Positions 14,247-48,200 of a stretch of 64,000 bases of DNA are shown here, in pieces. The position numbers and the translations under genes were made by a program. The notes under the pieces were generated by a model. It ran no database searches, was not told the origin of the DNA, and saw nothing but the letters and a program-made list of their open reading frames with translations. Each line of letters begins with the position of its first letter. Positions within the stretch are counted from its first letter, which is position 1. The stretch comes from Bryum argenteum (Eukaryota; Streptophyta; Bryopsida; Bryales; Bryaceae): assembly GCA_037043015.1 (NCBI GenBank), contig CM073322.1, positions 19,231,601 to 19,295,600 of the forward strand. The letters are read 5' to 3'.

Positions 14247-16631
14247 ATGCGTTACGCTCAGCTCGTGATCGGGCCCGCAGGCAGCGGCAAGGTACAACTT
14301 ATTCCGAAGGCGCTCTTTCTTAAAACTCAATGTGCAGGAAGAATAGGCAGTGAGTTCATTGCTTGCCGGTGGAAATGGCCAAAATGCTGGTTGAATCTTG
14401 AAAACATCCGGTGAAAGTACAAGAATTTTTTTTTTTCCTAGAGGCAGTAATCGGACTAGGCATGTGAAAAAGACTGATTGAAAATGGGAGAATTGCCGGT
14501 GAAGCTTGAAAACCTACCCGAACGTTGGAGAGGAAATTAGTTTTTGTAATAGTTTGTGATTTTGTTGGGAAGCTGATGCGATTGCTTGTTGCAGTCGACC
14601 TACTGTAAGAATGTCTTCGAGCACTGCCAGAGTATCGGCAGGACTGTTCATGTGGTGAACTTGGACCCTGCTGCCGATCATTTCGAGTACCCTGTCGCTA
14701 TAGGTGAGTGCTCTGCAATTATGTTACAACTCTTTGAATAGGAAATGGAACGGAATCCTAATTATTGCGTTCAATACAGATATCCGGGAGCTTATATCTC
14801 TAGAAGATGTGATGGAGGAGCTAAAACTTGGACCTAACGGAGGCCTTATATACTGCATGGAGTATCTGGAGGATAATCTCGACGACTGGCTGGCAGAGCA
14901 GTTGGAAGACTATATCGACGATGATTATCTGATCTTTGATTGTCCTGGTATGTTTGTATTCGAAACTGCTCTTGGACGCTCTTGACTTTAACAAAGGAGA
15001 AGATAGTTTAGGTTTTGTGCTGGTGTGTGATTCTCGGATGGGATCATACAAACAAAAATATTCTACATGTCATTGAATTATTTCGAGTGGTCTCTGCTTG
15101 GATTTGCGGGACAAGTTTCTCGAGTATTCAGAGTTTGTTAGGCCAGCAAAGAGCATTGAAGATTCGTTTCGTTTCTTTGTAGTTGCAGTATTATAAATTT
15201 GTGCTTTGTTCGAAGTAGTGGCCTTATTGTGGTTGTGATGAAGTAGAACAATATAGGATTGCCATTGGAGGCATCTGAAGGTGTTGGATGCAACAGCAGT
15301 TTAAGACTGTCGAGCTTTATCCACTAAGCAAATTATGAGCTTTGAATGTGCGCTTATTCTTAAGTACAAAATACAACATTCTTGGAATCGATACTATTAA
15401 GTTGGTCAATATGAACTAGTCTGAATATGAATGATGTGGTACTGACGACTCTAATCTGGATGATTGAGTTTATAAAGAACAGTTCTGTGATTTTATGCTA
15501 TCTGTGGATGCAGGTCAAATAGAATTGTATTCACATATTTCCGTGATCCGTTCGTTCGTGGATCAGCTGAAAAGATGGGATTTCAATGTTTGCGCTGTTT
15601 ACATGACTGACTCACAGGTCAGCAGACAGTTCATATCGGTCTTTGTTGCATGAGTTTTGTATGAGGATAATCTCTAACATGCTTTAATCTTGTCAATGTG
15701 TGCACAGTTTGTGTCAGATGTCACCAAGTATATTAGTGGTTGTATGGCTTCACTTTCAGCTATGATACAGCTAGAACTTCCGCACATCAATGTGTTGACA
15801 AAGGTCGATCTTCTTCCTAACAAGCGTGACGTTGATAGGTGGGGACGTGGTCTTTTCGCAAATTAAACCTTTAGCTTCCATTTTATCGCAAATTAAACCT
15901 TCAGCTTCCATTTTATTGCATTTTGTGCTAGTTGAAGGGTTTTGCTTTTCTCTCTTCTTTTGTTCACGTGGATTTTCCTATAACCTGACTTCAGTTCTTT
16001 GGACTAATAATTATGTGGATGGCCAGGTTCTTGGATCCTGATGTACGGCTTCTTTTTGATGATCTAAATGCTAACATGGCACCACGCTTCCGGAAGTTGA
16101 ACCATGCACTTGCTGAACTGGTACGCATCAATCATTTTCTTCGTGGTAGTCTGTAATTCGTTCAAGGTCTTCAGCTATCTCGTTTAGCTACTCTAATAAC
16201 CAGGGATTTTTCTGGTCCTCAAATGGAGTTTCTTATAGATTTATTCCTAATAATTTTTGATCAGCACTTCGACCTGTAAAGTCAAGTATTGAGTATCATG
16301 TGTTCTTCGCAGGTGGATGATTACAGCATGGTGAACTTTGTGCCGCTCGACATACGAAAAGAAGACAGGTTTGCTTTCAACCCAATCAAGCTGAATGTTT
16401 ATTATCAGCTTCATGGCACTGAACTGCTCCAGATTTTTCCTGGAACTTCGAGCACTCAGCCCTTGTTATAAAGGTCAGGAGTTGTTGCAAACTACTGGTA
16501 GTGATGCTTGTTGTTGGCACTATTGCAGCATCCAGTACCTCTTGTCCTGCATTGACAACTGCATTCAGTATGGAGAAGATTTGGAACCCAAGTTGAAGGA
16601 ACGTGATCCTGAGGATGCTGATGATGAGTGA
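14247..16631 (+). CDS. GPN3: GPN-loop GTPase 3
   Basis: Eight exons join without a frame break to 269 codons: 14,247-14,291; 14,595-14,703; 14,780-14,947; 15,514-15,617; 15,708-15,838; 16,027-16,120; 16,313-16,368; 16,529-16,631. All introns are GT-AG. The protein shows the P-loop GPAGSGKST (9-17), the diagnostic Gly-Pro-Asn insertion (69-71), DCPGQIEL (105-112) and TKVD (173-176), followed by an acidic C-terminus. This is the order and length of eukaryotic GPN3. Members of this family dimerise through the GPN loop and, with GPN1, help assemble and import RNA polymerase II; they act in the cytosol. The start is the first ATG directly before the P-loop, as in other members. No key residue is missing. 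A poly-A tract and a repeat follow the 3' UTR at about 17,010. Confidence 0.96.
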
Positions 16632-23986: not shown

Positions 23987-25581
23987 TTACGTGTGCATGT
24001 TGGAACAAAGGGCAGCACTGAGTTGCTTGAGGCCATCGCCAATGTTGACCAGGGCATCAATGTAACCACTTCCCAGTTTCATGGCGCCCCGGAACTTCTC
24101 CTTCTCCAACTCCAGCTTCACCCTCTCCATCTCGATGCCCTCGCGATGGCGCTTGTCTTTTCGATCCTCCGACTCTAACAATGCTTCCACCACGTTCTTG
24201 TTGTTGCGCACTAGAATCGTGGCTAGCCCTTCGTCCATCTTGTTCCACTTCCTCTTCTTCCCTGTCTGGTTTGGCCCACTGGTTTCCTCCCCGCTCTCGT
24301 CTTCTGAGTCCACCATCTCTGCTTTCACACCTGCACCTCAAAACCCTCAGCTCAGAATTCCCACAACAAAACTAAGCCTTGACAGCATTTACGGCCTTAA
24401 GCAAGTGAATTGAACACTACAGTATTCACAGGCTTAAGCAAGTGATTCTGGCACTGTAACATTCAGTCTTGATATAGTGACTTCAGCACTACAGCTTTCA
24501 GTCTTGAGCAAGAAAATTCAGCGCTTCAATGTTCAGTCTTCAGCGCTTCAATGTTAAGTCTTGGGCAAGTATATTCAAGGTTGTAATCTGATGAAATGAC
24601 GTATGTCCTTCTCGAGCTGTTGATTCTTAAACGCCCGACAAAGCCCTTCGGGCATGCTATTCAGTGCTCGGGCATGCTTTCCAGTGTACTTTGAAAAAAA
24701 TGGGCATTTTAAGGGTCGACTTAAGGTGAAGGCACGAACATATGAGCGAGATACGCTTTACAAGAAAAAGACCTACGTAAGGGGGAAATATAGAACGTGA
24801 ATGATCAGAAGAATGTGATATGAGACCATGAATGTGAAGCTGTTGTGGAAAGGGCATGAAAAAGTGAGACATGCAGTGAGGATTGAGCACCTGGTGAAGG
24901 GCCGAGGGGTCCCGAGGTATCAACAACGAGCTCTCCGGAGTCCGAATTCTTGCTCTTGGTATTACACCATTCGAGCAAAGCATTGAAAATCTCCTTCTGG
25001 AAATTGGGTGGCAGTTTATTGCGCTTCCGTTCTTCAGGCGTCATGGTCCAGTAAGACTTCTGGCCATTACAGACGTATTTCTCATTGTTGTACACTTTTT
25101 TGTACGCCGTAGAGATAACCTCCCACTTATCATGGCACTGTTGGGCGCTTCGGTGGGCGCCAGAGGCCCAGCAGTAGTCCTCGATCCAGCTCCATCGCTC
25201 CTGGGCGGGGTTCTGGGAGCCTTTGGCACCGCGAGCCTCGTGGCGGTGAAGATCCTCACGCTTGGCCGCCTGCAGGATGAGCATCTCCTCCACCACCCAA
25301 TTGCTCTTCTTGTAAATCCGCCCGCACCGGCTGCCCTGCGGGTGCCCGTAGACTACCTCGTCCTCGAGGGCGATTAAAGGGTGGTGGCTTCCTGCTCCCC
25401 CATGTTCTAGCAAGTGTGAGCTTCCACCGTTCCCGTGGCTTGCATTGCTGCCGTGCAGAATTTGATCCGCGTCTTGCAAATGCCCCCCCTGCTGCTCATC
25501 CCCTTCCGCTCCTCCTGGCGAGTGCCCGCTGGGATCCACCAGCCCTATGTCCGGCCTAAACTCACCACCATGCAGTTCCAT
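23987..25581 (-). CDS. Trihelix / Myb-SANT-like DNA-binding protein
   Basis: Two exons, 25,581-24,891 and 24,330-23,987, join in frame (CCAG|gt ... gcag|gt) to 344 residues. Residues about 88-205 form the DNA-binding region. It has tryptophans at 95, 130/132, 138 and 153, the AQQCHDKWEVISTAYKK helix typical of trihelix proteins (usually Cys-x-x-Lys/Asp-Trp-Asn/Glu), then FQKEIFNALLEWC. Exon 2 encodes an acidic patch, the basic stretch GKKRKWNK (nuclear signal candidate) and a charged coiled coil at about 280-315. The first 85 residues are His/Gly-rich and low in complexity. It is probably a nuclear transcription factor, but no target can be read from the sequence. Derivation from a transposon-encoded Myb-like protein is an alternative. 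The start is the first ATG after a CT-rich leader (minus strand GA-rich). Confidence 0.8.
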
Positions 25582-26170
25582 CTCCGATCATGCCAACACC
25601 CAAAACTATCTCTCTCTCTCGCTCACTCCGAGCCTCCTCCGCTCACATCGTACTCGCAATTGGCCACCTTCGGGACATTCCTCGACTTGCATGCAGGGGC
25701 CTGACACAAGCTTAGGGTTACAGTACGCGGGGACAGAAAAAGCGAGATACGTGAGTGCAATTGTGTGAGGCGAGGAATGGCGATGATGCTAGTGGAAAGG
25801 AAAAAGTGGGTTCGTCGGAGAAGGAGTGAAATGAAGGGTGCGAGAAGGGAAGGTGAGAGAGGGTCCCGGAAAAAGGATGCTTCTCAAGCTGCGAGTGAGT
25901 CAGCCTCTTGGACAGGTTTGTATGTTTTTAGGGTTGAGCTTGTACTCTACTGGCGGTGACATTTGTGCCCTGTCACCGCGGTGCCTATACCCGTGGATTT
26001 TGCCTTTTTGCTACCCCTCCATTATTGCTATTTCGGCACCTTCATACATTCGCATGTCGTTATGTGTATTTGAGGTATCTGCTCAAGGTCCCTTTTACAT
26101 TATGGACCAAGCGCCATGACCAAAAAAAATTTAAAATCATTTTCATGGTCATGGCTCTTGGCCTTGATTT
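25582..26170. promoter_or_regulatory. Upstream region of the trihelix-like gene
   Basis: A GA-rich (minus strand) leader lies directly before the start at 25,581. TTAGGGTTA at about 25,712-25,720 is a telo-box about 130 bp upstream. Open frames here have no domains. Confidence 0.4.
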
Positions 26171-29729: not shown

Positions 29730-32524
29730 TTAGCTGATCATCTGGCCAGAATTCACGCTACCAGGTGAGGCAGCTCGGGTGAGGAGCCTCCACTGAAAGT
29801 CAGAGTAGCGATCACCAGATCCGGAAAGGCCAATGGAGCCACCAGGCGGAGTGCTGCTACTCTCTTGGACACCAACATCCTGCGAGACCGAGCCACTTGC
29901 TGGACCTTCAACAGCAGTAATAGTTCCCTGGAACGAGAGAAACTGCACAACCTTAGAATCGTCCACCACAAGAGCTATCCCATCTCCGGGTCCATTCTGT
30001 ATCGAGCCTCCTGGAAGATTTGCTGCGTAAATCTGAGCGCTGGATCCTGCCACCTTCGACACTCGGAACAAGTCTGCATCGGCCAGTTGCAGTTTGCGAT
30101 ACACCGTTCCTTTGTTATCGTACAGATACACCGTTAATTTGGAAATGTCAGTCTTCGGTTCCACTACCACCTCAACAAACTGCACATCCAAGTCCCACAA
30201 ATATCTTCCTTCGTCAGATGGCCGGACATGACCCATGCGGAACGTATAGTTCCTTCTAGTCTGAAGTTGGTTCCTATTCTCCAATTGAGTATGTCCTACC
30301 CCATTTCAGCTGTTGCATCCAATTAAATCTTGATATCACAAGAATCAAGCTTTCTAACGAATAAGAAGATGCGTTTCAGAAGTGATGTCCAGACTAGACT
30401 AGTCCATGTCTTTGAATTAAGGATAAAGCCTATACGAATATTTGTGCATGAGTATATATAGTCCACTTCTAACAACTTTCCTAGCACTTCGTACTCTTCC
30501 CATGCATCTCTACCATGTTAGTCTCACAATCTCTATATTGTCTCAAGAAAAAGTATTTGTAGTGGCTGCTTATACGGGTTCTAGCAATGAATATCTTTAG
30601 TGGGAAGTACTGCGGGGTAGAATCCTTATCTGGCTTAATGTAAACGGAGGGTATTGCAGTAAAAGCATGCTAGCTCATTTAGCGCTTTACCTCGCCTTGG
30701 TCTTGACCTTGATTTGTATAATGAATTTCATTGATCCATGCATTTGGTAGCTGATTAGAATTATTTGGAACTGAGCCACCGGGTGTGGATGGCGGCCTGT
30801 TAACGTCAGGAGCACCCCAGATGAGCGACGCATACTCAGGGTGATCAACAAACGGGTTGCGATTGCCTTGGTACAAAGAGCAAACCCTTCCGTTCCTGAG
30901 CACCTCTGTAGTCGAGGGTGGGTCCACGTTGTTCCATTCCAAAAGAGTCGAGAGCAGCCCCATGGTCGCCTTTGCTGCGAAACAAAGTAAGCATATATCT
31001 TAGCCAACGACGAGTGCTTAAGAATGAACCAAAAAGTAGCAAAATGGCCACGTACCGACACTCGGTGAATCCGAAAGCTGCAGGTTCAAGTTGCCAGAGG
31101 GTTGCTCGAGCCCATAACGCACTGCCATGTAAAAGACTGCCCGTGCTATGTCTCCTCTCACCTAAGAACATATCAAGTGCTGTTAGACTGTGAAACTCTC
31201 TTTAAGATGCCACAGCATACGGGCATAATATACTCTTTGATACTTTCCTGGTGATATGCAAGATACTGCACAAGTGGCAAAGCAAACCTGAGATGGAGGC
31301 CGCCAAGTGTTCACATCGGTTGCTGTATCTGGTCCTGCCTCTTTGTTTGCAGGAATTAGACAACGTGTTGTCATAAGAGCTTGGCAGTCTCCGAAGTACT
31401 TATTTCCTCGAGAAGAATTTACTGTAAAACAGGATGGCAATGTCTCATTACGTTTTTTTAAATTTTAAAAAAGGTCAAACTAATCATCCTGATGTGAGGA
31501 TTAGCATAAATACCGTTAACGTCAGCTGGGCGCAAGTTGTGAACATCGGTGAACTCCGGTCGACCCTCCGCTAGACCATATGATCGAGGCCACAAATGCT
31601 CCCCTGCAGCCTCCTACGAACAACCTTCAATAAATCAACTCAATCACTGTTTAACTCAATCAGCTCAATCGATGTTCAGCTGAATCAACTCCATCAATGT
31701 TTGGCTGGAGCAGCTGACAAGAATACAGAGCAACCTCACAGAAAGCTTACAATTGATACACGAGCATTTAATAAGTAAAGGTTCACAAGAGCGAACTTAC
31801 GGTTCCAGCCATCGCTGCTCCCTTGAGAGCTTTTAGGGAACGTTCTTGAGCTGTAAATGTCCACTCTGCAAATTTGCGAACGTGCGTAAATTTAAACTGA
31901 AAACACACCTTGAACAAGAGAGTAAAACATCTTCAAAAACTTACACATCAGCGGAGGTCTCCGGTGATTGGGTGTTCGCAGAATCAAGAATCTTAAGAGC
32001 ATTCCATACCTGTAACACCAGAAAGTAACTCTCTAAGCCATTTACATTAGGACACGAACATCCTTGCAATCAATCAGTGCACCAGATTCCACGATCTTGA
32101 TACATATCAATTCAAGCTGAAAACTGTTTGATACCCGAGACAATGAAAGCTTATTGAACAAGAAGCAGATAGTGTTCAAGCACAAACCTGCGCGTAAGTG
32201 AGTTGCTTATGGCCTGCAACGATCGCGTGCAGCTTTGCTTTCAGATTAGCCCCCTTGAGACCAGATGCTTGGCTGTAATACTGATCGACATCGTCACAAC
32301 CAGCGGCAGAGGCAATGCCGACGTTCCAATTCAAGCTGACGGCCATAGCTACTGCTAAGATGATCTTCCAACCGACGTTTGCTGCTTCGGTAAGAACCGC
32401 AGGCCTACACAGCCATTGATCAATGGGAAATGAGCATCACAGTCTACATCACATTGTGAAATGGCTATCGTTGTTCTCCCCACCTTAAAATCATTGACTT
32501 TCGATCCTCGAATGGCTTCACCAT
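29730..32524 (-). CDS. Secreted endonuclease I with C-terminal lamin-tail-like domain
   Basis: Nine exons join in frame to about 485 residues: 32,524-32,484; 32,404-32,188; 32,009-31,947; 31,863-31,801; 31,613-31,514; 31,421-31,288; 31,161-31,056; 30,974-30,691; 30,179-29,730. A hydrophobic segment (KIILAVAMAVSL) ending near AGCDD fits a signal peptide. The nuclease domain starts YYSQASGLKG and contains GEHLWPRSYG (Glu133-His134, expected metal ligand and general base), FTDVHNLRPADVN and SSRGNKYFGDC, GDIARAVFYMAVRYG and YQGNRNPFVDHPEY. These are the endonuclease I (EndA/Vvn) landmarks in order. Residues about 318-480 (AWINEIHYTNQGQDQGEFVEV ... LSGSG..YSDFQW) form a lamin-tail-like beta domain, known in bacterial secreted nucleases. 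Likely role: extracellular or cell-wall cleavage of DNA/RNA. The first exon and its 79-bp intron are the weakest calls; a shorter start at the ATG inside exon 2 (MAVSLNW) is possible. The fourth-exon acceptor (tgcagag|tgg) was chosen for frame. Confidence 0.88.
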
Positions 32525-32930
32525 TGCTTCCTGTGAAATTCTCCATAGCGAGCACCGTATCGCTCGCCTCTCTGGTGCAAAACGAGGTCGCTGTCTCCAG
32601 CTCGTCTTTGGAACGTCCCCGATCCGGCATGTCCTACGAGATGGACAGGGCCGCAAGGAAAACGAACTATACTGAGCGATCGCCATGGATGCGGAGCCCG
32701 CCATAGATAAGAAAAAAGGCAGGGGAGGTAAACTGAAGTGCGAGACGAAGTTGGGAACATGCGAACAAGGTTAAGTTCCCCAACCTTAAGGGAGCCGAAA
32801 CCCTTATCGTTCACTTCCATACACTTTGCGTGTTGGAGCGCAACGAGCATGTGCACGCGATTCGTTCAGCAAACACGATTGCTGTTGTGAAAAGATCATT
32901 GCAATTTTTTGTGAGTTACATGTTTTTTCC
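32525..32930. promoter_or_regulatory. Shared divergent promoter region, endonuclease and BolA
   Basis: The two genes are transcribed away from each other with about 400 bp between start codons. Frames on the minus strand run through this interval but have no domain, so it is best read as the two leaders plus promoter. No clear TATA box seen. Confidence 0.45.
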
Positions 32931-33314
32931 ATGCAGAGGTGGGTGCCGTCGTCACACGGCAATGCTTTAGTGAAGAGATTGCAGGTTGCTTGTTCGTTTG
33001 CCGCAATGTCGATGGTGGCCGGGATGATGACGAAGAAGCTGGTGATTGAGAAGAAGCTGACGCAGGGGTTGGCACCCGTGCTGCTAAATGTGGAGGACGT
33101 CTCCCACCAGCACGCGGGCCACGCAGGGGCTCCTAAAGGCTCCTCTGAGACGCATTTCAATGTGACGATTGTGTCAGACCAGTTTCAAAGGATGAGCTTG
33201 CTCAAACGTCATCGCCTCGTCTACGATATCCTGCAGGAGGAGCTTCAACACGGTGGTGTGCATGCCCTCTCCCTTAACACCAAAACACCAGCTGAGATTG
33301 CTCCCAAACCCTAG
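32931..33314 (+). CDS. BolA-like protein, probably organellar
   Basis: A single open exon of 127 residues. ATG 32,931 is the first in-frame ATG, although the frame is open upstream without one. Residues about 35-123 are a BolA domain: LVIEKKLTQGLAP, then LNVEDVSHQHAGHAG (long loop of the BolA1/BolA4 type), ETHFNVTIVSDQF, LLKRHRLVYDILQEEL, and GVHALSLNTKTPAE. His111 is the invariant ligand position, and the RHR motif is intact. The first ~33 residues are basic, hydroxylated and free of acidic residues (MQRWVPSSHGNALVKR), consistent with mitochondrial or plastid targeting. BolA proteins pair with monothiol glutaredoxins and help hand over iron-sulphur clusters. In plants BolA1 is fused to SufE; no SufE domain is seen here, so BolA4-like is more likely. 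A splice acceptor-like 'ccatgcag|agg' overlaps the ATG, so an upstream exon cannot be excluded. Confidence 0.9.
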   Translation: MQRWVPSSHGNALVKRLQVACSFAAMSMVAGMMTKKLVIEKKLTQGLAPVLLNVEDVSHQHAGHAGAPKGSSETHFNVTIVSDQFQRMSLLKRHRLVYDILQEELQHGGVHALSLNTKTPAEIAPKP

Positions 33315-34658: not shown

Positions 34659-36873
34659 TCAAGGAGAAGGTTCCTCTAGAGAACTTGTAGAAAACCTAGG
34701 CTTGCCCATACTGACACTGTCATCCAACACTCCTATCCTGGACAATTTGTTTCTTGGGCTTGGCCTGCTCATGAAGCTACTTCCTCGGACAGTTCCAGCT
34801 TTGAGAGTCGGAGGAAGAGATACCAGTGGCTTCTTTGGTGCGACCTTCTCAGAGCTGCTGCAGCGTGGGCAAGCTGGGTCTTGGCGAGCGCTATCAGGAG
34901 TAATTTGCTCCAGGCACTCGGTATGATAGGTGTGGCCACATACCAACACTCCCACTACATTGCATTCATGGAAGCCCATGACCCGCGAAGAGGCCCATGG
35001 AGATCGTTGCGTGAGCGAACGCGAACATATACTACACGCCTGCACAAAAACCACAACGTGAGCAAATGCCACCAGAGTAAAAATACAGTTCAACCTACAA
35101 AGCTTTGCTTATCGATCTTCCGCAAAACTCAGTAGGCAAACTTCTGTATGAACGAATTGAGCTATTAACAATCACATTCGCGATAAAACTCCATAACTGG
35201 GTGTCAATGGTAACAAACCCCAAGATATCAATCTTACGAAACGAGGATTTTGAAAGACTACATCAGTTATGGACCAGATCAAGTTCAAACATTTTTATTG
35301 AAGTGCATTACTGAAGGGAATATTTAGGAACAGGTACGAGAGGCTACCTCAGGCCGAGGGCTGGGTGAGGATGACTGAGAACTGCCGGCGATTATCTTCT
35401 CCATGCACATCTGACCTGAACCTCTATCATACGCATCTCGATAATTGCCCCAGCTGTACTCAGACGAACTCGTGGCATTTGTCATTCTTAACCATTCTTG
35501 GCGTGCATCCGGACCCGCTTCCAAGAAGCCATGGTAAGATGACCAGTCAGAGCTTCCTCCTGCACTGGAACTTCGGCTAGAGTTTGATCGATGGAAAGAA
35601 AACCGCCCATCTAAAGATGCCAAACGACCCGGACCCGAGGGGGGGATACGTCCTTCATAATGATCTCTCCGAGAAGGATTACTGGGCACCAGAAATGAGG
35701 GTTTGGACACCATCGAATCGTCCACCTGAGAAGGCGACGGAAGAACAGATTCTGAGTGGGTTGGAGGTTTCATACTATTAACAAACGGCGACAGAGTGAT
35801 CTCGGATTTGTTTGGAACTGTAGGCGGACGAGGAAAAGAGTGTTCCTGCAGAATAATAACGCAGTCAATTCCGCATCCAAAGCTGAGGATCTACTAGACC
35901 ACTCCAATGACAATTCCTGTAACTTGCCCTAACCCAAATCGGAGCTTTGTTGTTCACATGTGAGGTAGACACCCCTGGGAAACACGACCCTTAAGACCAC
36001 CAAGCTCCATCAATGACAACAATGATCGAGAGTTTTAAGTAACTGGAGCATGGAAGCAGTTTCATTAGAGATAGTACTCACAGATATGGAAGAAGACATC
36101 ATATTCGATGGACTGTCTGCTAATTCTGCAGTACAAATAACCTCAATATCGTCAGACTGCAGATCGTCTTCAAGGAATGATGTGTATGTGCAGGACGTCC
36201 GCTGTTGCCCACAAATATGATTCCAATAAGCGAGATCCTCACTCAGATACCCTCAAGGATTGTGACAATTGTATATATTAACAAAGATGAGCTCACTACT
36301 CAAGCGCTAGATGTGAAGCATTTATGTACCTGATTCAGCTGTCATCGAGTCAGCGATACGATGGCTGGACGAAGCAAGAGGATTCCAAATAAAGTTGTTG
36401 GGACTCCCACCATAAATGCTCCCAGATGGAGTCCGATAATGATTGTAAAGTCTAGAGGCATCTACTCTCCTCCAGCTTCTACTGCCGCGACCACTGGAGG
36501 ATAAAGATCTTCTGTGAGTAGGAAAAGTTCGAGACGAAGTGCCGAGATATTCTTCCCCTTGAGACTGATCCAAGTGGGAGCTCGAAAACGTAGGCACATA
36601 TCCTTCATTCGAGTGCCAGCGAGGTTTGTCCCCGGGATGTGACCAATTGTGAGCGTTCTCAGCTGATCCATGTGGCCTTGCGGCCACACAGCAAAGGGAC
36701 CCCGTTTTGGCTGCCTGAGTGCACACCCTCTCTTTCTCTTTTTCAGTGAGATTGACCCCCTCGTCCCGAAGACCCGGGACAGGTACCGCCGCCGTGGTGC
36801 CTGAATTTACCCTTTCAGGTTGGAGTGTGATAGCTGGTTGTTGCACTCGTAACTCTTCAAGGTACAACAGGTT
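34659..36873 (-). CDS. Ser-rich RING-type zinc finger protein (N-terminus unresolved)
   Basis: Four exons join in frame: 36,873-36,330; 36,125-36,082; 35,845-35,348; 35,039-34,659, giving 488 residues. The first starts at a splice acceptor (ttgcag|AAC), so at least one more 5' exon is expected; GC-richer spliced-looking sequence with gcag/gt borders lies at 37,091-37,236. The long middle is Ser/Arg/Pro-rich and probably disordered (SSRTFPTHRRSLSSSGRGSR, then SFHRSNSSRSSSAGGSSDWS). The last exon encodes Cys-x2-Cys (ACSICSRSL), then VCGHTYHTEC and CPRC, spanning 35,036-34,860. This is a C3H2C3 RING with all eight ligand positions filled. Such proteins act as E3 ubiquitin ligases, binding an E2 through the RING. 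Substrate and location cannot be read. The Ser-rich region may be a phosphorylation platform, which is inference. The 110 residues after the RING are Ser/Pro/Lys-rich. Confidence 0.85.
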
Positions 36874-45655: not shown

Positions 45656-48200
45656 AAGATTGGCGTTGACATTTCGCTAAAGAGTGTAGGTGCAACCTTT
45701 GGAGCCGAACAAAGCCATAAGAGAGACCCTTTCTAGTCTCCATCCCGCTCCAAAGAAGATCCGAGAAACGACGAGGATCAAAATTTTCCATGACTTTTCC
45801 TTGGGTACCAAGGTTCTAGTAATAAAATTTGCAACCAATGCCCTCGTTTGAGCCAACGGATCAAACACCTTCAAACCACCTCTCTTGATAGATGGGATGA
45901 TCACTGTATCTCAAGTTACTTGCGCACATGTTTGTGATCAGCTTTACCAATCCAAATAAAATTCCTCTCAAGTAGGAACCAATAGAAGAACTCTCATGGA
46001 AATGTCACAACATGAGGCAAAGTACCAGATAATTGTTAAAATCACCTAATTGGAACCAAAATTATGGGTGCAAGGGATCAACACTTATTCGACCAATTAT
46101 TTAGCTTGCTACGGATGTGTAAAAGCTTCTTCACATCTTGTTCTTTTGAAAAAATTCACTCCTGAACAAAATCTCAGCCTAGACTATCGTGGATTTAGCA
46201 TTTGAGACCTTTTTTTTTCTCCCATCTCCAAGATTGTGTGCGATTAGAAGTCCAAAACGCATTGGACTTCTCCTTGTTAAGCTTTGCTTGAGAGGATGCG
46301 CAAAAACGTTTCACTACAGCAAAGGCTCTGGACAAATTATCCTCGTCCCCTTGAAAATAGAGCGTTGTATCGTCAACAAAACTTTGGACGATGAATGACA
46401 GAGAAATATGAGATAAAACAAGCCTTTGAAGGCCATAAATACGATTGTTCAACATGTCATTAAATACATCGGAAATAACTACGTAAAGGTAGGGTGATAG
46501 TCGACGGTGTGGTGAATGTCAAACTTCTGAAAACATTTACTATTCAGAAGCATTGAAGAGTGAGCATTCTTGTATACTGAGGAATACCATTTTGGTGAGA
46601 GTTTTAGCTTTTCTATTGTCGCCTCAAGGAAGAACCAATTTACTCGATTATAGGCTCTTTCATAATCAAGTTGGACTACAACCAAATCTTGATTGCTTTC
46701 TTGAGCCCAATAGGTAGAGTCGTAAGCAAGAAAAAGATTACCCAAAACGCAATGTTCCTTTACAAACCCTATTCGAGTGAGATATTAATAGCTCAAAGAA
46801 ACTCTTGAACTTGGATGGCAAGGGTTTTGGCAATGAGCTTGTAAATCTCTGTAACCATTGAAATGGGTCGATAATTGCATATGGATCCACCATGGATCCA
46901 CCTTTTGGTATCAATGGTGTAACTTTACGCTTAAAGGAGTCCTCCATACCTCCATTCTTAAAACTTCTTCTATTACCGTCGTAAGGTCCGCTCCCATGGA
47001 ATCCCACATTTCAAAAAGAAGTTCAGGTGGGATAGCATCATGCTCTTAGCATCATTCCCTCCTGCTCTATTTGGTGGTATATCTTCAAAAGCAGAGTTTT
47101 AAGTTCCGCTTCATCAAATGATTCGGTCAACTTCAAGTTTATTTCATCCGTCCATATGAGACACATTCGTCTTCTCAGTCTCATCCGTCTAAGAGACATT
47201 GAAAAGGCATTTTTCTCTAGTCTCTACATTTAGCTTTACTATCATATCATTTGAGTAAAGCTCTTTAGAAAATTGTTGACAAACTCTTCAATTTCATTTG
47301 ATTCACGAAGAGATTTTCTCCCTCGATGATATTTGACGTACAAGGAGCCTTGTGAAATTCAAAGAACTCCTTTGGGCAACGATTTCGAAATCGAACACCA
47401 CTTCGCTAATTTCGAGAAGATTCTGGCCTATATTAACAAATATTTTCTAATTAATCTTGAGCTCCATCCAAAGTGTTCCAAGCATCTAAATCATATGAGT
47501 CCTCTCCTAATGTTGTCTTTGCGAGTGAACGGGCAACAAACTCGTTACAATTCTTCCTTGTACTCACACTTGCAATCCTAGGTAATGTATTCACCATCAT
47601 GGCGGATATCCTCCAAACATGTTGTTACTCAAACTTCCTTCGAATAAGTTTCAGGCTCATGCATGGCAAAGTTACAAGCTTTCTCAAATATCTCTATGGC
47701 TGCTTCATCCTAGAGGAGTCTACAATTGAAGCCTATTTTACCTCTGAAGACTAACGGTCACTTGGTATTGCAAAAATATGTTAGCATGATCTGAAATATT
47801 GTAAATTGTAGGTCATCTACCTCCTTTGCTACTAATTTGTGAAGATGTATAAAACATGTCAATTTGCGACCATGTCGGAATAGGATGTTTACGTTGCCAT
47901 GTGTGACGTTTGATCGCAATACGTCGGTATTTATCCGAATAGAAAACATCTTGGAGTCCTAGTCTCCCCAAGAAGCTTCTTCTCTACTACCCATGTCTTG
48001 TGCATGGAAGTCCGAGGAACAATCCTCCCTGTCCTATTAAGATCTTAAGCTAAAATCCAATTGGCCTTTGGGAACAAATATTTGCTAATTTGTTCCAAAA
48101 TCTTGCTCTTGTCGACGTGTCATTAGAAGAATATGCCTTGGAGATACCAAACGATTGTTGATAATGCTCCTAGATAATATATTGCACGCGATCTTCAACA
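45656..48200 (-). pseudogene. Degenerate LINE (non-LTR retrotransposon) with endonuclease and reverse transcriptase remnants
   Basis: Read on the minus strand from high to low coordinates. The apurinic-type endonuclease region has FWNKLAN..., NWILA-x-DLN (the GDFN-like motif, interrupted by a stop) near 48,080-48,040, TWSQIDMFY near 47,870-47,850 and NISDHAN near 47,796-47,780. The reverse transcriptase region has PLIPKGGS near 46,920, VVVQLDYERAYNRVNWFFLEA near 46,690-46,620 and QSFVDDTTLYFQGD near 46,375-46,335. The tail has ERNFIWIGKADHK and GGLKVFDPLAQTRALV (45,960-45,830). Stops and frame changes separate every block, so the copy is dead. It resembles the plant L1-like clade with EN plus RT. 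No gag-like first frame was recognised, and target-site duplications were not found. Confidence 0.85.

What the first reader, a model, noticed from the sequence alone, without database searches (positions are those of the whole stretch)
29730..32524. Bacterial-type endonuclease I fused to a lamin-tail-like domain in a nine-exon plant gene
The exon chain reads as signal peptide, endonuclease I core with the Glu-His (GEHLWP) and DVHNLRP motifs, then a complete lamin-tail-like beta domain. Endonuclease I is best known from secreted or periplasmic bacterial nucleases, and lamin-tail domains are often attached to bacterial extracellular nucleases. The bacterial architecture with eight plant introns suggests an old horizontal acquisition now fully domesticated, perhaps for cell-wall anchoring, phosphate scavenging or defence against extracellular DNA.
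Basis: partly seen in the sequence, partly recalled or inferred. Interest (0 to 1): 0.75.

Follow-up and report, generated by a model that had tools for sequence, protein, structure and literature searches.

The report
Plant gene for bacterial-type secreted nuclease
A plant chromosome carries a single, intron-split gene for a bacterial-type DNA-cutting enzyme joined to a second domain otherwise seen in bacterial secreted nucleases; both parts look most like proteins of one bacterial phylum, so it is probably an old gene acquisition from bacteria.

Summary
The gene is real. On the minus strand, nine exons (32524 to 29730, all GT-AG) give an uninterrupted 483-aa protein. Residues 65-286 match Pfam Endonuclease_1 at E 4e-39. 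The active-site motif, assembled across the exon 4/5 junction, is NREHLWPRSYG, not GEHLWP. PF00932 does not hit the plant C-terminal domain, but that domain is up to 47% identical to bacterial domains, one of which passes the PF00932 cut-off. One exon encodes the nuclease end, the linker and the start of the C-terminal domain, so the fusion is visible in the DNA. No second copy was found in the 259-Mb plant genome. Bacteria have the same fusion: many Planctomycetota, a few Gammaproteobacteria and Bacteroidota. In the larger trees both halves group with Verrucomicrobiota rather than with those fused proteins, but the AU test excludes the fused family only for the C-terminal half. I judge it a domesticated bacterial gene for a secreted, metal-dependent, non-specific endonuclease. 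No eukaryotic homologues, RNA data or structure were available, so transfer is likely but unproven.

The parts
32484..32524 (-). exon 1 (ATG at 32524; residues 1-14)
   Evidence: ORF and GT donor; alternative in-frame ATGs at 32704, 32686, 32494
32188..32404 (-). exon 2: hydrophobic segment of the putative signal peptide (to about 32302), start of the mature protein (CDDVDQYY...) and start of the Endonuclease_1 match
   Evidence: hydropathy; cleavage site inferred
31945..32009 (-). exon 3, Endonuclease_1 domain
31801..31865 (-). exon 4, Endonuclease_1 domain, ends inside the Arg codon of NREH
31514..31603 (-). exon 5, active-site E131-H132 and DVHNLRPADVN
31288..31421 (-). exon 6, Endonuclease_1 domain (NSSRGNKYF..., with Asn161, the proposed metal-side Asn)
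31056..31161 (-). exon 7, Endonuclease_1 domain (RGDIARAVFYMAVRYG)
30691..30974 (-). exon 8: end of Endonuclease_1 (QGNRNPFVDHPEYASLIWG), linker (about 30813-30745) and first part of the LTD-type domain (AWINEIHYTNQGQDQGE)
   Evidence: a single uninterrupted frame that links both halves
29730..30179 (-). exon 9: rest of the LTD-type domain and stop codon
30180..30690 (-). intron 8 (511 bases, longest), lies inside the LTD-type domain, not between the domains; if retained, translation stops after ...GEVKR
32931..33314 (+). neighbouring head-to-head BolA-like gene (single frame; start codon chosen by me), about 0.4 kb from the nuclease start codon
   Evidence: PF01722 E 3.9e-31

Best explanation
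An intact, apparently single-copy plant nuclear gene for a secreted, Mg-type, sequence-non-specific endonuclease of the Endonuclease I (EndA/Vvn) family, with a bacterial lamin-tail-type beta domain at its C-terminus. It was probably acquired long ago from a Verrucomicrobiota-like bacterium and has since gained eight introns. Proposed working: signal peptide to the apoplast; catalysis by the His-Me finger (His132 as general base, Glu131 and Asn161 at the metal); the LTD-type domain helps to hold the enzyme at a surface or on substrate; the outcome is cleavage of extracellular nucleic acid, for defence or nutrient recovery. Shown: gene structure, nuclease family membership, conserved catalytic motif, domain homology, no second copy found, bacterial fused relatives. 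Inferred: secretion, activity, role of the second domain, transfer and donor, physiological use.
For: Nine-exon frame, all GT-AG. PF04231 full length, E 4.1e-39. Weak direct matches to solved Endonuclease I structures (four at E 1.5e-4 to 2.3e-4, a fifth at 0.028) that align the D-x-H-N-L and N-x-x-R-x-N stretch. E131, H132 and N161 invariant in two alignments with bacterial relatives. Roles of Glu79, His80 and Asn127 in Vvn as described in PMC5758888 (passages); the residue correspondence is my inference. LTD half 46.8% identical, E 3e-22, to the N-terminal domain of a 900-aa bacterial ORF. Exon 8 spans both halves. Only match to PF04231 and to the protein in its genome, which has 90 Chloroa_b-bind matches. 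Both halves fall with Verrucomicrobiota rows: nuclease half inside starred sets, 97/93 and 98/90, 99/90 and 95/87; LTD half with 11 Verrucomicrobiota LTDs, 94/84, just under the star threshold.
Against: AU tests do not reject trees with the Verrucomicrobiota nuclease rows as a clade without the plant (p 0.302; p 0.422) or the plant with the fused bacterial family (p 0.242, 0.183, 0.271, 0.364). Two rows of the Verrucomicrobiota search (L116, L119) stood apart and were left out. In the LTD tree 13 of 24 Verrucomicrobiota LTD rows lie in the other large set, with the fused LTDs, and plant + that 44-row set is not rejected (p 0.373). Highest pairwise nuclease identity is to a Streptomyces protein (48%). 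No eukaryotic homologues searched. PF00932 itself does not hit the plant domain. No structure obtained. Signal peptide not tested by a predictor; a longer N-terminus is possible.
Confidence: 0.62

Rival explanations
1. The plant received the gene ready-fused from the planctomycete/gammaproteobacterial Endonuclease I-LTD family.
For: Same domain order and nearly the same length (L011: 472-aa open frame); nuclease-half AU tests do not reject plant + fused (p 0.18-0.36).
Against: LTD half: plant + 26 fused LTDs as one clade rejected, p-AU 0.0149. Nuclease half: fused rows form their own 100/100 clade without the plant. The plant lacks the (Y)NREHSWPKSYGFP-like form and the glycine-rich insertion of the six fused rows aligned.
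Confidence: 0.17
2. A Verrucomicrobiota-like donor that already had the two domains fused, not yet sampled.
For: Both halves point to the same phylum; genome G1054, which holds the nearest nuclease row by path (L181), also holds the best LTD row, in a different ORF.
Against: By my reading of the tables, no row covers most of both halves among 288, 288 and 260 partly overlapping genomes. The one row that ran from residue 238 to 481 (G1458) was opened and has the LTD but no nuclease domain.
Confidence: 0.3
3. Old vertical inheritance: the gene was in early eukaryotes or algae and was lost in most lineages.
For: LTD-like domains without lamin features are reported in 'several eukaryotes' (PMC5630835, passages); no eukaryotic collection could be searched here.
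Against: The plant rows sit among or beside bacterial rows of one phylum for both halves.
Confidence: 0.15
4. Bacterial contamination of the assembly, or a non-functional relic.
For: Strong bacterial similarity.
Against: Eight GT-AG introns, a contig over 34 Mb long, a BolA-like neighbour 0.4 kb away, no stop or frameshift in the joined frame, catalytic residues kept.
Confidence: 0.03

Closest known systems
Endonuclease I family, PF04231 (E. coli EndA, Vibrio Vvn, Bacillus/Streptomyces endonucleases)
   Same: Full-length domain, E-H catalytic pair, N-x-x-R-x-N motif, N-terminal hydrophobic export-like segment
   Different: Plant nuclear gene with eight introns; extra C-terminal domain; 25-45% identity to the bacterial nuclease rows aligned over 180 residues or more (up to 48% in tree alignments)
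Fused Endonuclease I-LTD proteins of Planctomycetota and some Gammaproteobacteria (e.g. L011, L137)
   Same: Same two domains in the same order in one frame; L011 has a single LTD and ends at the same place
   Different: Separate clades in the trees; some have two LTDs or longer tails; different active-site neighbourhood
ExeM/NucH extracellular nucleases (e.g. Paracoccus L006, annotated so; Indioceanicola L001 resembles them by eye, not scanned)
   Same: The LTD domain, 43-47% identical
   Different: In ExeM the LTD is followed by an EEP-type nuclease domain (PMC6085458, passages); the plant protein has Endonuclease I before the LTD and no other Pfam domain
Verrucomicrobiota Endonuclease I proteins (L181, L217, L052, L029) and Verrucomicrobiota LTD proteins (L195, L196)
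   Same: Nearest neighbours of each plant half in the larger trees
   Different: In the rows seen, the two domains are in separate ORFs
Nuclear lamins
   Same: Distant relatives through the LTD family
   Different: No lamin rod found (Pfam gives only Endonuclease_1) and no CaaX end (protein ends ...SGQMIS)

Membership tests
Endonuclease I (PF04231) | Match above the curated cut-off over the whole domain | tested here: met
   135.2 bits, cut-off 25, profile 2-235 of 235
Endonuclease I (PF04231) | Glu-His catalytic pair and metal-side Asn | tested here: met
   E131, H132, N161 invariant in alignments A1 and A5; roles in Vvn from PMC5758888 (passages); correspondence inferred
Endonuclease I (PF04231) | Export signal | tested here: inconclusive
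   Hydrophobic segment and A-x-A site; start codon uncertain; no predictor
Endonuclease I (PF04231) | Metal-dependent nuclease activity | not testable with these tools
   Needs protein
NCBIfam NF011716 (deoxyribonuclease I equivalog) | Score above the curated cut-off | tested here: not met
   32.3 bits against 372
Lamin tail domain (PF00932) | Match above the curated cut-off | tested here: not met
   No hit at E up to 10; no PF00932 match anywhere in the own genome
Lamin tail domain (PF00932) | Homology to domains that do pass the cut-off | tested here: met
   41% identity to the L137 domain, which scores 38.7 against 34.3
Lamin tail domain (PF00932) | Ig-like beta fold | not tested
   Structure job still not finished at the last poll
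ExeM/NucH extracellular nuclease | EEP nuclease domain after the LTD | tested here: not met
   Only Endonuclease_1 is found by Pfam, and the protein ends with the LTD-type domain
Horizontally acquired bacterial gene | Plant sequence nested among bacterial sequences | tested here: inconclusive
   Nested with starred support, AU test does not exclude the alternatives
Horizontally acquired bacterial gene | Patchy presence among eukaryotes | not testable with these tools
   No eukaryotic genome other than the window's own was available

The most novel reading that the evidence does not exclude
Two separate Verrucomicrobiota-derived genes, a secreted Endonuclease I and an LTD protein, were joined to each other independently of the planctomycete fusion, either in the donor lineage or after arrival in the plant, giving a plant extracellular nuclease whose bacterial architecture is convergent rather than inherited.
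Probability: 0.3. Interest if true: 0.62.

Novelty: new member of a known kind. Interest (0 to 1): 0.47.

Why it matters
Plants handle extracellular DNA and RNA with S1/P1-type and T2-type enzymes (recalled, no call). A bacterial His-Me finger endonuclease with a bacterial surface-type domain would be a different tool for the same space, with one gene to knock out. It also adds a two-domain case, with a candidate donor phylum, to the bacterial genes thought to be acquired by plants, and shows that the Endonuclease I-LTD pairing recurs, which suggests that the LTD does something useful for secreted nucleases.

Tried and rejected
PF00932 on the plant protein: no hit. Search for paralogues in the plant genome: none (the tool calls its counts lower bounds). 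Viral contigs: no relative with the single protein; with the alignment, 16 loci, none covering both halves. Phage records: 2 of 50,697, both 'UNVERIFIED' faecal scaffolds. First nuclease trees put the plant next to a single long Akkermansiaceae branch; I did not trust this, and sampled more. Two rows that might have been further fusions were opened: G1458 (LTD, no nuclease domain) and G432/L129 (nuclease, no LTD). Literature in the held open-access library: searches for the gene itself found 0 papers; wider searches were seen as listings, and term passages of seven papers were looked at (an eighth had no passage with the terms); none of these passages describes a plant Endonuclease I-LTD gene. 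Yue et al. 2012 is not held; its 'bifunctional nuclease' in P. patens is known to me only through a passage of PMC5350094, and I think it is another family (recalled). The upstream in-frame ATGs could give a longer, transit-peptide-like N-terminus; codon use does not support it, but the test is short and its codon table was made from this same gene.

Rows dropped before counts, chosen by hand: one search used 51 of 89 rows; one search built 82 rows after leaving out near copies, short matches and duplicates; one search used 56 of 82; one search left out 25 of those 82 and two duplicate loci (L173, L190) of the new set, giving 81 rows; one search used 66 of 81 (15 dropped, among them the long L194 and L126 and the Verrucomicrobiota-search rows L116, L119, L170, L172, L175, L182, L185); one search dropped 6 more and added 7; one search left out loci L098, L100, L101, L103, L104, L124 and L138, and the duplicates L121 and L136, from the LTD set.

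Full report
WHAT IS THERE. The finding's coordinates are exact and the gene is on the minus strand. Joining nine exons (32524-32484, 32404-32188, 32009-31945, 31865-31801, 31603-31514, 31421-31288, 31161-31056, 30974-30691, 30179-29730) gives one frame of 483 residues plus a stop; all eight introns are GT...AG and the phases agree. Pfam finds Endonuclease_1 at residues 65-286, E 4.1e-39. E131, H132 and N161 are invariant with the bacterial relatives aligned. phmmer aligns the DVHNLRP...N stretch with solved Endonuclease I sequences, four at E 1.5e-4 to 2.3e-4 and a fifth at 0.028. In Vvn, Glu79 contacts the cation, His80 is the general base and Asn127 is the equivalent of the metal-chelating Asn117 of NucB (PMC5758888, passages). 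The correspondence of the plant residues is my inference.

THE SECOND DOMAIN. PF00932 gives no hit on the plant C-terminal stretch with a limit of E 10. Sequence comparison still identifies it: it is 46.8% identical, E 3e-22, to the N-terminal domain of a 900-aa ORF on an Indioceanicola plasmid, and 44%, 45% and 43% identical to three bacterial LTDs by alignment. The Indioceanicola domain hits PF00932 below the cut-off; a planctomycete domain 41% identical to the plant's passes it. Over the 54 LTD matches identity runs from 29 to 47%. Exon 8 holds about the last fifth of the nuclease domain, the linker and AWINEIHYTNQGQDQGE, the start of the second domain, in one uninterrupted frame. Intron 8 lies inside the second domain, not at the border. 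The fusion is therefore a property of the DNA and does not depend on joining two gene models.

SURROUNDINGS. The window lies on contig C2 of a 258.8-Mb assembly with 25 contigs. That genome has 90 Chloroa_b-bind matches, so I take it for a photosynthetic plant; its name is not given. The nuclease is the only match to PF04231, and the protein finds only its own exons (8 of 8 matches). A BolA-like gene (PF01722, E 3.9e-31) starts about 0.4 kb away on the other strand. The start codon is open: in-frame ATGs lie at 32704, 32686, 32524 and 32494. The stretch 32704-32525 scores as non-coding in frame (-0.15, against +0.19 and +0.18 for exons 2 and 8, which were part of the codon table), so I keep 32524. 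Residues 28-46 are hydrophobic and followed by A/AGC, consistent with a cleaved secretion signal. Two N-glycosylation sequons and four cysteines are present.

BACTERIAL RELATIVES. Of 294 genomes in the phylum of G003 (Planctomycetota by L013's record title), 66 match; 8 rows in 7 genomes, the seed included, span both halves, and, by my count from the table, 12 further ORFs carry nuclease and LTD rows in one frame. In the class of G002 (Gammaproteobacteria by title) 41 of 274 genomes match and only the seed spans both halves; one other row that ran into the LTD region (G432, L129) has no LTD by tblastn. In the Verrucomicrobiota draws 34 of 288, 87 of 288 and 83 of 260 genomes match (the draws overlap), with the two domains in separate ORFs in the rows I read; the one suspicious row (G1458) has only the LTD. 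The fused architecture is therefore recurrent in bacteria and not unique to this plant.

TREES. Nuclease half: with 66 rows the plant lies inside starred Verrucomicrobiota sets (19 + plant, 97/93; 13 + plant, 98/90), and the fused planctomycete/gamma rows form a 100/100 clade elsewhere; with 67 partly different rows the sets are 23 + plant, 99/90, and 19 + plant, 95/87. In the quick tree of 81 rows the smallest starred set that holds the plant is wider: 24 Verrucomicrobiota rows, 15 fused rows and the plant. AU tests do not reject a Verrucomicrobiota clade without the plant (p 0.302; p 0.422) or plant + fused (p 0.242; 0.183; 0.271; 0.364). Two rows of the Verrucomicrobiota search (L116, L119) stood apart and were left out later. 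LTD half: an early tree of 13 rows was unresolved, and one of 50 rows put the plant by the Paracoccus LTDs, SH-aLRT 86. With more Verrucomicrobiota LTDs, 64 rows, the plant joins 11 of them at 94/84 (not starred), and a 100/98 branch separates it from a 44-row set that holds all 26 fused LTDs but also 13 of the 24 Verrucomicrobiota LTD rows; the bootstrap had not settled and the plant row has an unusual composition. Plant + fused LTDs is rejected, p-AU 0.0149, but plant + the 44-row set is not, p 0.373. Two halves pointing to the same phylum is the strongest argument for one donor lineage; each alone is moderate. Taxon labels of G handles are inferred from the record titles of the seed loci.

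MECHANISM. Best reading: a secreted, divalent-metal-dependent, non-specific endonuclease. For the LTD the only functional data seen are for Shewanella ExeM: deleting its LTD lowered activity in vitro but left clearing zones in vivo nearly normal, and the authors call their results 'not inconsistent' with a role in membrane association (PMC6085458, passages). For the plant protein I expect the same kind of auxiliary role; this is inference. Defence and phosphate recovery are both open.

NOVELTY. Both domain families and their pairing exist in bacteria. LTD-like domains in non-lamin eukaryotic proteins have been noted (PMC5630835, passages). Searches of the held library for the gene itself found no paper, and the wider ones showed none in what I saw of them, but much of the plant transfer literature is not held. 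I rate it a new member of a known kind, with a bolder reading (independent fusion) that the data allow.

LIMITS. No eukaryotic comparison, no expression data, no structure (job not finished), no trained signal-peptide predictor.

Noticed in passing
window 32931-33314 (+): BolA-like gene in one frame (PF01722 E 3.9e-31), head to head with the nuclease gene with about 0.4 kb between start codons; a shared promoter region is possible.
   Followed up: partly
window 32704-32525 (-): In-frame ATGs at 32704 and 32686 in ATGGC context would add 60 or 54 residues rich in Ser and Arg, like a transit peptide; codon use does not support it.
   Followed up: partly
window 30180-30690 (-): If intron 8 is retained, translation stops after GEVKR, giving a nuclease without most of the second domain; a possible splice form.
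   Followed up: no
window 46198-46784 (-): Two overlapping frames match reverse transcriptase (RVT_1, E 2e-9 and 5e-4), a retroelement remnant.
   Followed up: no
window 14704-14982 (+); 24808-25584 (-); 34662-35108 (-): Pieces of other genes: ATP_bind_1 (PF03029, E 5e-21), Myb/SANT-like (PF13837, E 6e-10), RING-like zinc finger (below cut-off).
   Followed up: no
G000 C5:8161886-8412977, C5:14730833-14760859, C2:25064562-25094660: Clusters of short Chloroa_b-bind matches (about residues 31-161 of the family) in the plant genome; they look like expanded ELIP-type genes (label recalled, not tested), as in desiccation-tolerant plants.
   Followed up: no
L002 (MT835825.1): A record named 'Bacteriophage sp.' carries a nuclease that groups with Nocardioides sequences; the scaffold is probably bacterial.
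   Followed up: no
L014 3006-4865 and 4869-6734: Two fused Endonuclease I-LTD genes in tandem in a planctomycete MAG; Phycisphaerae copies (L012, L013) carry two LTDs each.
   Followed up: no
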